A stretch of DNA of 64,000 nucleotides, from the NCBI RefSeq assembly GCF_034555375.1, contig NZ_CP140706.1:177001-241000 (forward strand), in the 5' to 3' direction. How positions within the stretch are numbered: position 1 is the stretch's first letter; every line of letters starts with the position of its first letter. Shown here piece by piece: positions 32,055-35,406 of the stretch. Source of the stretch: Pseudomonas sp. B33.4 (lineage in GTDB: Bacteria; Pseudomonadota; Gammaproteobacteria; Pseudomonadales; Pseudomonadaceae). The notes under the pieces are model-generated. The model saw only the letters and a list, made by a program, of their open reading frames with translations. It had not been told where the DNA came from and did no database searches. The position numbers and the translations under genes were made by a program.

Positions 32055-32148
32055 CCTGTGGGAGCTGGCTTGCCAGCGATAGCGGTGCATCAGCCGACAT
32101 CGATGTCTGCTGAACGGACGCCATCGCTGGCAAGCCAGCTCCCACAGG
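32055..32148. repeat. REP palindrome, CTGGCTTGCCAGCGAT class
   Basis: Inverted units TGTGGGAGCTGGCTTGCCAG at both ends of a 94-bp segment. Confidence 0.9.
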
Positions 32149-32203
32149 GGTTTCCGCCCTCCATGATATCTCAGGCAAACCACAGAACCTGTGGGAGTGG
32201 GGC

Positions 32204-32614
32204 TTAGGAGCCGCGATAGGTCGAGAAACCATACGGGCTGAGCAGCAGCGGGATGTGGTAGTGCTGATCGGTCTGCTTCACTTCGAAGATCACCGGAATT
32301 TCCGGAAAGAATGTGTCGTGCTTGACCTTCTTGAAGTATTCGCCGGTTTTGAATACCACGCGGTATTCACCCGCTTCAAAAGGCTGCTTGGCCGGGAACA
32401 GTTCGGCGATGCGCCCTTGTTCATTGGTCGTGCCTTGAGCAAGAGGCTGCCAGTTCTCGCCGACGTGTTTTTCCAGCGTCACGTTAATGCCCGGCGACGG
32501 CAGGCCGTTTTCCAGATTGAGCACGTGCACGCTCAACGGGTTGCCAGCGGCCAGCGCCAGGCTTGAAAAAGCGCTCAGGCCGAGCGCGGCGAAGGTCATG
32601 CGCAAAGTATTCAT
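32204..32614 (-). CDS. Periplasmic 5-hydroxyisourate hydrolase (transthyretin-like)
   Basis: 136 residues with a signal peptide (cleavage near ALA-AGN). The mature part shows the HIUase motifs: LSVHVLNLENGLP with the catalytic His, a middle GRIAELF, and the C-terminal tetrapeptide YRGS. It would hydrolyse 5-hydroxyisourate, a urate oxidation product, but no urate genes are near. Export to the periplasm mirrors E. coli HiuH (YedX), whose gene is controlled by the peroxide/chlorine-responsive HprRS pair; here too a two-component system is next door. Second gene after the HbpS-like gene, 12 nt apart. Confidence 0.85.
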   Translation of the reverse strand: MNTLRMTFAALGLSAFSSLALAAGNPLSVHVLNLENGLPSPGINVTLEKHVGENWQPLAQGTTNEQGRIAELFPAKQPFEAGEYRVVFKTGEYFKKVKHDTFFPEIPVIFEVKQTDQHYHIPLLLSPYGFSTYRGS

Positions 32615-32626
32615 GGATGCATCTCC

Positions 32627-33112
32627 TTATTGGGAACGGGTGATGGCCAGACCGGTTTTCCCGGCAGCCTTGATTGCACAGTTTTCGTCTTGCTCACCGC
32701 CGCCGGAACCGGCCACGCCCATGGCGCCAACCAGTTCCGTGCCGAGGAACAGCGGAATGCCGCCGCCGAGCAACAGCAGTTCGTCGAGGGTGTTGAGGTT
32801 GGCGGTTTCCGGATTGCTGCGAGCCCGTTCGGCAAACAACCGGGTCGCTGTTTTGGTCGACAGCGCGGTGTAGGCCTTGCGTTGGCTGGCAACGGTGTTG
32901 TGCGGGCCAACGCCGTCACCGCGCAAGGTCACCAGGAGATTGCCGCCACGGTCGAGCACCGACACCGTGCCGGTGCAATCGCTCATTGCCGTGTTGGCCA
33001 GCAGTTGCGCGGTTTTCAGGTCGAGGTCGGCATGGCGTGGCAGTTCAGGGCTTGCGAACACGCTGGCGCTGAGGCTGACGGCCAGGCTGGCGACAAGGTA
33101 TTTGAGGGTCAT
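32627..33112 (-). CDS. Secreted GlcG/HbpS-family protein
   Basis: 161 residues with a signal peptide (SASVFAS). The mature protein is a DUF336/HbpS domain: VSVLDRGGNLLVTLRGDG, SQRKAYTALS, GGGIPLFLGTELVGAMGVAG. Members bind haem or small molecules; Streptomyces HbpS tunes the SenS kinase under redox stress. First gene of a two-gene unit transcribed away from a two-component system, with a 16-bp palindrome in the gap. Confidence 0.85.
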   Translation of the reverse strand: MTLKYLVASLAVSLSASVFASPELPRHADLDLKTAQLLANTAMSDCTGTVSVLDRGGNLLVTLRGDGVGPHNTVASQRKAYTALSTKTATRLFAERARSNPETANLNTLDELLLLGGGIPLFLGTELVGAMGVAGSGGGEQDENCAIKAAGKTGLAITRSQ

Positions 33113-33178
33113 GGGCAGGCTCCAAAAGCGAAGGTCGTCACCTTAATCGCCGGTCTTCGTCAGAACCTCGTCAGTCTG

Positions 33179-33194
33179 ATTACAAGTTTGTAAT
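33179..33194. promoter_or_regulatory. Perfect palindrome resembling the HprR/CusR box
   Basis: ATTACAA-GT-TTGTAAT, 7-bp arms, 66 bp before the HbpS-like gene and 53 bp before the response-regulator gene. From memory the E. coli HprR box is CATTACAAAATTGTAATG, with identical arms and spacing. One site could serve both divergent units. Confidence 0.75.
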
Positions 33195-33247
33195 GGGCAA
33201 CGCCGTCGAAGGCGCCTAGCCTGTGTGCCTGTCAATCGAGGTGTGCC

Positions 33248-33928
33248 ATGCGTTTGCTGGTCGTAGAAGATGAAGCCAAAACCGCGAATTTCCTCGCCAA
33301 AGGCCTGGGCGAGTCGGGTTTTGCCGTGGACGTGGCGCTCAATGGTCTCGATGGTCGTTACTTTATCGAGCAACAGGAATATGACCTGATCATCCTCGAC
33401 GTGATGCTCCCCGGCCTCAATGGCTGGCAATTGTTGCAGCTGATCCGCCAGCGCGGCGCCACGCCGGTGCTGTTCCTCACCGCCAAGGACGCCATCGAAG
33501 ACCGTGTGCGCGGTCTCGAACTGGGTGCCGACGATTACTTGCTCAAACCCTTCGCCTTCGCTGAACTGCTTGCGCGGGTGCGCACGTTGCTGCGGCGCGG
33601 GCCGATGCGCGAAGCCGAGTCGTACACCATCGCCGACCTGGAAATCGACGTACTGCGGCGCCGCGTGAGTCGTGGTGGTCAGCGTATTGCCCTGACCAAC
33701 AAGGAATTCGCCCTGCTGCAATTGCTCGCCAGCCGTCAGGGCGAAGTGCTCTCGCGCACGCTGATCGCCTCGCAGGTGTGGAACCTGAATTTCGACAGCG
33801 ACACCAACATGGTCGAAGTGGCGGTGCGTCGTTTGCGCGCGAAAGTCGATGATCCGTACATGCCGAAACTGATCCACACCGTGCGCGGCGTCGGCTATCA
33901 ACTGGAAGCGCCGGACGATGCGCTCTAG
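33248..33928 (+). CDS. OmpR-family response regulator (HprR/CopR-like)
   Basis: 226 residues: receiver domain with acidic pocket Glu7/Asp8, phospho-acceptor Asp51 (LDVMLPG) and Lys100 (LLKPF); winged-helix DNA-binding domain from about 128 to 220 with [19 protein letters not shown] and [10 protein letters not shown]. The DNA-binding end is of the IrlR/CopR/CusR/HprR type, which bind TTACAA-type palindromes; such a palindrome lies in its own promoter region. It overlaps the kinase gene by 11 bp. Confidence 0.9.
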
Positions 33929-35303
33929 GTCGATCGCCTGGCGCCTGGCGCTGGCGTTCGCATTGGTCTGCGCTTTGGTGCTGAGCGCCATTGGGGTGTT
34001 TCTCTATCGCTCGCTGGCCTCGGAAATCGCCTACCGCGACGACCTCGCGTTGCTCGGTCGACTGGAGCAAGTGCGCGCCTTGCTCGCCGACAGCGACAGC
34101 CTAGGTGCTTTGCAGGCGCGGCCTCGGCTGTATCAGAACATGCTCGGCAATCTCGACAGCCTGCTACTGGTGCGCCGCGCCGACGGATCGGGCGTGATCG
34201 CGATCAATCCACGGCAACGCGATTTGCCCGCATTACACGCCATCCCCCGCGAGCAAACGCCACAGCGTCCCGATGTATTGACCTGGCAAGCGCCGGACGG
34301 TGCTGAACTGGCGCTGTTGTCCGGCGAAGCGCAGGGCCCGAACGGCGAGCCGCTCACGATCATTGCCGGCAAAGTGCTGAGCGAGCGCGAGCAGATGCTC
34401 GGCAGCTATCGCATGCGCTTGTACCTTTCGGTTGGACTCGGCGCGTTGCTCGCTTTTGCCTTGGGTTTGCTGTTGCTGCGTCGGGGCCTGCCACCGTTGC
34501 GGCAGTTGAGCGAAGCGGTGCGCGGCATCGATCTGCGTAGCCTTGATCAACGCCTGCCCGCCAATGGCACGCCCGCCGAATTGCTTGAACCAGTGCAGGC
34601 GCTCAACGGCATGCTGGCGCGACTGGACGACAGCGTGCAGCGCCTGTCGCAATTCTCCGCTGACCTCGCCCACGAGATTCGTACGCCGCTGCACACCTTG
34701 CTGGCGAGCAACGGCCAGGCGCTGAATCATCCGCGCAGCACCGAGGAGTATCAGGAAGTGCTGGCGTCGAACATGGAAGAGTTCGAACGGCTCAAGCGCA
34801 TGGCGGAAAACCTGATGTTCCTCGCCCGGGCAGAACAGGCCGAACGCGCGCTGAATCTGCAAATCCTGGATTTGCCCAGTGTTGGCAGTGAACTGTGTGA
34901 TTACTTTGAAGCCTTGGCGGATGACCGCGAGGTGCGGCTGGACAATCAATTGCGCGGTGAATTGCTTGCCGATCAGCAATTGCTGCAACGAGCACTCGGC
35001 AATCTGCTGGCCAATGCCGTGCGTCATGCCGATCAAGGATCGGTGATCAGTCTGCGTCGCCGCGACGAGCCGGGTGAGTGCTGGTTGCAAGTGCACAACC
35101 ATGGCCCCGCGATTGCGCAGGAGCATCTGAGCAAACTGTTCGACCGCTTCTACCGCGTTGATCCGTCGCGTGCAGAACCGGGGGATTCGGGTGGGTTGGG
35201 GTTGGCGATCGTGCAGTCGATCATGCAGTTGCATGGGGGACAGGTGCGGGTGATTAGTGATGCTGACGGCACTGTTTTTGAGCTGGGGTTTGTGGTGAAT
35301 TAA
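33918..35303 (+). CDS. Heavy-metal/redox-type sensor histidine kinase
   Basis: 461 residues. Two TM segments (about 10-30 and 165-187) bracket a periplasmic sensor domain of about 135 residues; HAMP follows (about 190-240), then HisKA with the phospho-acceptor His in [14 protein letters not shown] and an HATPase domain with [22 protein letters not shown] and GLGLAIVQS. Architecture is that of CusS/IrlS/HprS. The periplasmic domain has no His/Met metal-binding cluster that I can see, which fits a redox signal better than copper (inference). The HbpS-like protein is also periplasmic and could modulate it. Confidence 0.88.
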
Positions 35304-35311
35304 AAGACACT

Positions 35312-35377
35312 ATCGCGAGCAGGCTCACTCCTACAGTTGGAATGCGTTCCCCCTGTAGGAGTGAGCCTGCTCGCGAT
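35312..35377. repeat. REP palindrome, TGAGCCTGCTCGCGAT class
   Basis: Inverted pair between the kinase and the convergent AraC-family gene. Confidence 0.9.
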
Positions 35378-35406
35378 GGCGCCAGATCAGACGACCTGAT
35401 TCTGGA

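What the first reader, a model, noticed from the sequence alone, without database searches (positions are those of the whole stretch)
33113..33247. Perfect ATTACAA-N2-TTGTAAT palindrome in a divergent promoter matches the HprR/CusR box type
The sequence shows a 16-bp perfect palindrome between the HbpS-like gene and the response-regulator gene. Known: E. coli HprR and CusR bind palindromes with TTACAA or TGACAA arms two bases apart, and HprR controls hiuH. The regulator next to this site belongs to the same OmpR subfamily and the opposite unit encodes a HiuH-type protein. It is a ready-made hypothesis for a conserved circuit in Pseudomonas.
Basis: partly seen in the sequence, partly recalled or inferred. 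Interest (0 to 1): 0.75.

Follow-up and report, generated by a model that had tools for sequence, protein, structure and literature searches.

The report
HprR-like stress switch in Pseudomonas
A 16-base DNA palindrome between two oppositely facing gene pairs in Pseudomonas is very probably the switch by which a two-component stress sensor turns on itself and two secreted proteins, built like a known E. coli oxidant-stress switch but with a different set of target genes.

Summary
The palindrome is real: ATTACAAGTTTGTAAT, 33179-33194. All 100 copies of the divergon hbpS-hiuH / regulator-kinase that I aligned carry it with at most 2 mismatches; ATTAC and TGTAAT are invariant. E. coli has the same 14 specified bases between hprR and hiuH, named the CusR/HprR box in print (PMC9302797, legend). 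A -10-like hexamer of hbpS lies 33 nt from the box, as at E. coli hiuH and cusC. The kinase groups with HprS and lacks the first copper-ligand pair of CopS/CusS, so I predict an oxidant rather than a copper signal.

Corrections: the box is a CopR/CusR-subfamily type, not diagnostic of HprR; HprR orthology is neither shown nor rejected; no close MsrP was found, an HbpS-like gene stands there instead; the divergon is in 55 of 199 sampled Pseudomonas genomes.

New: in one clade of 14 genomes the kinase and the regulator's DNA-binding half are gone, yet hbpS-hiuH, its -10 spacing and a box remain; in 12 an arm has become TGACA, as in paralogues' boxes. Binding and expression were not tested.

The parts
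33179..33194 (.). Regulator box, perfect palindrome ATTACAA-GT-TTGTAAT
   Evidence: conserved in 100 of 100 aligned divergons within 2 mismatches; same arms in the E. coli hprR-hiuH gap
33217..33222 (+). Putative -10 (TAGCCT) of the regulator gene, 22 nt from the box
   Evidence: TANNNT at offset 22 in 99 of 100 loci; transcription start not mapped
33140..33145 (-). Putative -10 (TAAGGT) of hbpS-hiuH, 33 nt from the box
   Evidence: TANNNT at offset 33 in 77 of 77 loci with regulator identity 76% or more; CANNNT at 33 in 23 of 23 more distant loci; also 14 of 14 receiver-only loci
33158..33174 (-). Two CTGACG repeats 11 bp apart (33169-33174, 33158-33163) between box and hbpS -10; possible further half-sites
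   Evidence: read; conserved in the near group consensus; function inferred only
33248..33928 (+). OmpR-type response regulator of the CopR/CusR/HprR subfamily, 226 aa
   Evidence: Pfam receiver + Trans_reg_C; TIGR01387 339 bits over cut-off 279.2, under the HprR (295.7 of 353) and CusR (313.6 of 420) equivalog cut-offs
33918..35303 (+). Sensor histidine kinase, 461 aa, HprS-type periplasmic domain
   Evidence: TIGR01386 426 bits over cut-off 292.55; alignment and tree
32627..33112 (-). HbpS-like protein, 161 aa, signal-peptide-like N terminus (by eye)
   Evidence: PF03928; nearest solved relative is the haem-binding HbpS, 3fpv, E 1.1e-15
32204..32614 (-). HiuH-type 5-hydroxyisourate hydrolase/transthyretin, 136 aa, signal-peptide-like N terminus (by eye)
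   Evidence: PF00576 and TIGR02962 over cut-off; groups with E. coli HiuH

Best explanation
The palindrome is the operator of the adjacent response regulator. A periplasmic stress (most likely reactive chlorine species or another methionine oxidant) activates the kinase; the phosphorylated regulator binds the 16-bp box as a dimer and activates both divergent promoters: its own regulator-kinase operon (box centre about 42 bp before the start) and hbpS-hiuH (about 53 bp, one helical turn further). It works like E. coli HprSR on hiuH-msrPQ, with an HbpS-like protein in place of MsrPQ. Shown by sequence: the box, its coupling to the gene set, the fixed -10 spacings, the sensor-domain kinship. Inferred: binding, activation, the signal, the starts of transcription and what HbpS-like and HiuH do in the stress.
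For: Box within 2 mismatches in 100 of 100 aligned divergons, also in two relatives outside the genus, G360 and G470, with 2 and 1 mismatches. Identical arms in the E. coli hprR-hiuH gap, named a CusR/HprR box in PMC9302797. -10-like hexamer at 33 nt on the target side in 77 of 77 near and, as CANNNT, 23 of 23 far loci, and in E. coli as the best-scoring hexamer at hiuH and at cusC; 15 of 19 other gammaproteobacterial subfamily loci share the 33 nt. Regulators of the divergon form one clade (95-96). Coupled loss: 5 of 5 orphan regulators lack box, kinase, hbpS and hiuH, and 4 of 4 aligned ones have a 4-residue gap before the recognition helix. Kinase: tree split HprS + divergon + one own paralogue against CusS, CopS and two more 100/98; HprS M72 column Met in 101 of 101, M153 column Met in 94 of 101; the CopS His41-Phe42 position is never His-Phe in 101.
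Against: No binding, expression or start-site data. The regulator is below the HprR model cut-off and HprR's best match in this genome is the CopR-like paralogue (57%) rather than this one (53%). The own paralogue at C1:3946747 has the same sensor Met positions and a similar box, so the sensor traits are not unique. The M73 column of HprS is Leu in 101 of 101 divergon kinases and neither HprS transmembrane Cys column is Cys; if, as I recall, M73 is one of the two sensing Met, half of that evidence falls. On the E. coli hprR side the 22-nt hexamer ties with one at 36, and cusR's best is at 37, so the 22-nt rule is shown for Pseudomonas only.
Confidence: 0.78

Rival explanations
1. The box is mainly an operator of a paralogous copper or zinc regulator (CopR/CzcR type), and the locus belongs to metal tolerance; the adjacent regulator is a minor or secondary user.
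For: In P. paraeruginosa CusR, CopR and CzcR act through one palindrome and IrlR and MmnR target it in DAP-seq (PMC11195947, passages). Own paralogues have boxes differing by 1-2 bases: ATTACAACTTTGTCAT and ATTACAACTTTGTCAG. In receiver-only genomes the box persists without the adjacent DNA-binding regulator.
Against: 0 of 100 full divergons have a TGACA arm, whereas 10 of 13 CopR-like paralogue loci examined have ATTACAACTTTGTCAG. Box and full regulator are lost or changed together. The kinase lacks the first copper-ligand pair.
Confidence: 0.15
2. Autoregulation only: the box serves regulator-kinase expression and hbpS-hiuH is a neighbour with its own control.
For: The regulator side has the better conserved -10 (TAG-CT).
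Against: The hbpS -10 spacing is kept at 33 nt in 77 of 77 near loci and in 14 of 14 receiver-only loci in which the regulator side -10 is gone: the box outlives the regulator promoter but not hbpS-hiuH.
Confidence: 0.05
3. The palindrome is a chance inverted repeat.
For: The window holds 10 perfect 7+2+7 repeats, simulated mean 5.9.
Against: Conservation in 100 of 100 loci and 0 matches of the reversed control in 199 genomes.
Confidence: 0.01

Closest known systems
E. coli HprSR (YedVW) - hiuH-msrPQ divergon
   Same: Two-component pair divergent from a secreted HiuH; identical 14 specified bases of the box; 33 nt from box to the target -10-like hexamer; HprS-type sensor with a Met in the M72 and (94 of 101) M153 columns
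   Different: HbpS-like gene precedes hiuH, no msrPQ beside it and no close MsrP found in the genome; regulator below the HprR cut-off, 53% identity, orthology unresolved; M73 and transmembrane Cys not kept
E. coli CusSR and Pseudomonas CopRS/CzcRS/CusRS
   Same: Same regulator subfamily (TIGR01387/TIGR01386), same kind of operator, divergent layout, 33-nt spacing at cusC
   Different: Arms TTACAA/TTGTAA on both sides instead of TGACAA (cusC) or mixed TTACAA/TGACAA (own CopR-like paralogue); kinase lacks the His-Phe copper ligand position; targets are not efflux or copper proteins
Streptomyces HbpS-SenS-SenR
   Same: An HbpS-family secreted protein beside a two-component system (PMC3754957, abstract start seen in a listing)
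   Different: Different regulator and kinase families by my recall; no test here that HbpS-like touches the kinase

Membership tests
CopR/CusR/CzcR/HprR regulator subfamily (TIGR01387) | Score over the curated cut-off | tested here: met
   339 bits against 279.2
HprR equivalog (NF008567) | Score over the curated cut-off | tested here: not met
   295.7 bits against 353
HprR equivalog (NF008567) | Common clade with E. coli HprR apart from CopR/CusR | tested here: inconclusive
   best tree puts HprR with CopR/CusR; p-AU 0.484 for the joint clade
HprSR-type circuit | ATTACAANNTTGTAAT box in the gap to a divergent secreted hiuH operon | tested here: met
HprSR-type circuit | hiuH followed by msrPQ | tested here: not met
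   hbpS-like precedes hiuH, next gene is a convergent CRP-like regulator; best MsrP match in the genome 30% over part of the length
HprSR-type circuit | Periplasmic sensing Met and transmembrane Cys of HprS | tested here: inconclusive
   M72 column Met 101/101, M153 column Met 94/101, M73 column Leu 101/101, Cys columns never Cys; two Met and one Cys stated in PMC10151825 without numbers in the passage seen
HprSR-type circuit | Induction by reactive chlorine species through the pair | not testable with these tools
   needs reporter and mutant
CusS/CopS copper sensors | Dimer-interface His41, Phe42, His140 (CopS numbering, PMC7763554 passages) | tested here: not met
   first pair never His-Phe in 101 kinases; at the two columns where CusS has His at the second site, His in 1 and 5 of 101
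HbpS-SenSR | HbpS-family protein | tested here: met
   PF03928 91.5 bits over 25
HbpS-SenSR | Accessory protein acts on the kinase | not testable with these tools
   not examined

The most novel reading that the evidence does not exclude
Regulator takeover caught in progress: in one Pseudomonas clade the cognate kinase and the regulator's DNA-binding domain were lost, leaving a selected 119-121-residue phospho-acceptor receiver beside an intact hbpS-hiuH operon whose box then moved, arm by arm, to the TGACA code of a CopR/CzcR-type paralogue, which now drives it. The second arm base (T or G) would then be the in vivo specificity letter that keeps the oxidant and metal circuits of this subfamily apart.
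Probability: 0.4. Interest if true: 0.72.

Novelty: new variant of a known kind. Interest (0 to 1): 0.55.

Why it matters
It would extend an oxidant-sensing circuit known from E. coli to many environmental Pseudomonas, with a different target (HbpS-like instead of MsrPQ), and supply a natural series (full circuit, receiver-only with altered box, orphan regulator without box) in which the operator code separating the oxidant from the metal regulators of one crowded subfamily can be tested directly.

Tried and rejected
Considered and rejected: (1) chance palindrome. (2) The box as proof of HprR: rejected, because exact copies lie near other subfamily regulators (8 of 30 fetched loci) and near an OprD porin, an outer-membrane efflux protein, a DUF2790 protein and another such regulator (Pfam on single representatives; 16 of the 17 other sites looked at; G169 not). 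(3) Plain orthology with HprR. (4) A copper sensor. (5) A 22-nt rule on the E. coli regulator side: not unique there. (6) A wide regulon: up to 1 mismatch in ATTACN5TGTAAT the genome gives 21 strand hits against 10 for the control pattern; I did not pursue the weak ones beyond those next to paralogues.

Dead ends: the HprSR primary paper is not held, so the numbered sensing residues M73 and M153 are recalled. The OprD and czcC names for sites not scanned by Pfam come from reading ORF starts.

Rows dropped: 6 of the 80 loci (L076, L077, L079-L082), not Pseudomonas, no box (4-7 mismatches), were left out of the 100; L065, counted among them, is titled only gamma proteobacterium. Of 30 loci, 19 entered the spacing count: L231 and L243 (own genome, G360) and L229 and L236 (box far from the regulator) were left out, 7 had no box. 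L048 gave no kinase long enough. Of the 55 divergon genomes all four genes were seen in 47; in 8 (G062, G011, G036, G074, G073, G029, G131, G197) regulator, box place and HiuH only.

Full report
WHAT IS THERE. The gap 33113-33247 lies between hbpS-like and hiuH (leftward) and a regulator-kinase pair (rightward). It holds the perfect palindrome ATTACAAGTTTGTAAT at 33179-33194. It is the only exact copy in the genome.

CONSERVATION. Of 80 loci brought in by the regulator, 74 carry the exact 14 specified bases 52-54 nt before the start codon; the 6 that do not are distant bacteria. Adding the window and 25 more divergent Pseudomonas loci gives 100, all with HbpS, HiuH and kinase hits; 76 boxes are exact, 11 have one mismatch and 13 two, and the columns ATTAC and TGTAAT never vary. 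Two relatives outside the genus, G360 (same family) and G470 (same order), have the divergon with boxes of 2 and 1 mismatches.

HOW COMMON. In 199 sampled Pseudomonas genomes the exact box gives 48 sites in 46 genomes, reversed control 0; 31 are at this divergon. The divergon is in 55 genomes: 30 with regulator identity of 88% or more and 25 with 70-81%. In 47 all four genes were seen, in 8 the regulator, the box place and HiuH. The close secreted HiuH is in 69 genomes: these 55 and 14 described below.

PROMOTER GRAMMAR. On the hbpS side a TANNNT hexamer starts 33 nt from the box in 77 of 77 loci with regulator identity of 76% or more; in the 23 others it is CANNNT at the same place. On the regulator side TANNNT is at 22 nt in 99 of 100. 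In E. coli the best -10-like hexamer on the hiuH side (TATCCT) and on the cusC side (TAAAGT) is also at 33; on the hprR side 22 (TATGAT) ties with 36, on the cusR side the best is at 37. In 19 other gammaproteobacterial loci of the subfamily, 15 have TANNNT at 33 on the far side and 12 on the regulator side; 17 and 13 of 19 have GTNA at 6-9 nt, a possible third half-site 11 bp from the box arm. So 33 nt looks like a rule of the whole subfamily. No start site was mapped.

WHICH FAMILY. The regulator passes TIGR01387 and fails the HprR and CusR equivalog cut-offs. Divergon regulators form one clade with the orphan copies inside (95-96). E. coli HprR, a long branch, falls with CopR/CusR; holding it with the divergon costs 0.54 log-likelihood units, p-AU 0.484. 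The kinases and HprS fall on one side with one own paralogue (100/98), CusS, CopS-like and two more on the other; a clade of HprS and the divergon kinases alone is not decided (p-AU 0.511). HiuH of the divergon groups with E. coli HiuH (89/89, not starred) apart from the other class members, including this genome's second HiuH.

SIGNAL. In 101 divergon kinases the HprS M72 column is Met in 101, M153 in 94 (Ile in 7); M73 is Leu in 101, and the two Cys columns near the membrane are never Cys. A review says that two periplasmic Met and a transmembrane Cys matter in HprS (PMC10151825, passage). CopS and CusS share His41, Phe42 and His140 as copper sites (PMC7763554, passages); the first pair is never His-Phe here, and the two columns where CusS has His at the second site hold His in 1 and 5 of 101. 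I read this as an oxidant sensor, with moderate confidence.

PARALOGUES AND CROSS-TALK. The genome has five regulators over the TIGR01387 cut-off. The CopR-like one (divergent from a cupredoxin-domain protein) has ATTACAACTTTGTCAG, the one at C1:3946747 has ATTACAACTTTGTCAT. PMC11195947 (passages) reports one palindrome serving CusR, CopR and CzcR, with IrlR and MmnR at the same place in DAP-seq; PMC8249747 (passages) reports that HprR and CusR share a sequence with different affinity. Cross-talk is therefore likely here too.

NATURAL VARIANTS. (a) Five regulators of 70-75% identity (G022, G125, G154, G050 second copy, G114) have no kinase, HbpS or HiuH hit beside them and no box nearer than 5 mismatches; the four aligned ones lack 4 residues just before the recognition helix and differ within it. 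(b) In 14 genomes (L244-L257) the syntenic neighbours (AraC-like and desaturase 14 of 14, CRP-like 13 of 14) and hbpS-hiuH stay, the kinase gives no hit, and the regulator is cut to a receiver-only ORF of 119-121 residues, intact in 12, broken in L254, gone in L253. Silent codon changes outnumber others 176 to 52 over the six compared pairs that leave out the broken copy. The start codon now lies 16-19 nt from the box, so the regulator -10 is gone; the hbpS hexamer is still at 33 nt in 14 of 14. Boxes: ATTACAGGTTTGTAAT in 2, ATGACAGGTTTGTAAT in 8, ATGACAGGTTTGTCAT in 2, ATGACAAAGTTGTAAT in 2; the last is, reversed, the box of the own-genome paralogue at C1:3946747. A TGACA arm is thus in 12 of 14 against 0 of 100 full divergons. 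The 14 are one clade (100/99), nested among full ones, and the 2 with unchanged outer arms branch first: one lineage and few events, so a story and not a statistic. The 14 genomes hold 3-7 other subfamily regulators; of 28 paralogue loci examined, 10 of 13 CopR-like ones have ATTACAACTTTGTCAG, 6 of 6 of the C1:3946747 type end in TTGTCAT, and 9 CzcR-like ones have no such box within 1 mismatch.

MECHANISM. Shown: box, coupling to the gene set, spacings, kinship. Inferred: dimer binding, activation of both sides, oxidant signal. HbpS-like and HiuH are probably secreted (N termini by eye); what they protect is open. E. coli makes periplasmic MsrPQ from the matching operon; here no close MsrP was found and the HbpS-like protein takes its place in the operon.

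IN PRINT. Searches for this locus in Pseudomonas listed no paper whose title or abstract start describes it; the library holds open papers only and I read listings, not those papers.

Noticed in passing
L244-L257 (14 Pseudomonas genomes): Receiver-only remnant of the regulator (119-121 aa, intact in 12 of 14) under apparent selection, kinase lost, hbpS-hiuH and an altered box kept.
   Followed up: yes
L137, L148-L151: Orphan full-length regulators without kinase, targets or box; the four aligned have a 4-residue gap before the recognition helix.
   Followed up: partly
L097, L155 (OprD); L159 (outer-membrane efflux); L096 (DUF2790); L154 (regulator): The same exact palindrome lies beside these other genes in other Pseudomonas.
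   Followed up: partly
L214-L241: Subfamily loci of other Gammaproteobacteria often show a -10-like hexamer 33 nt from the box on both sides and GTNA 6-9 nt from it.
   Followed up: partly
window 32060-32160 and 35310-35380: G/C-rich inverted repeats of the REP kind (by eye) flank the divergon on both sides.
   Followed up: no
G000:C1:1931349-1931693 (L205): Second HiuH without a matching N-terminal stretch, grouping with the other class members.
   Followed up: no
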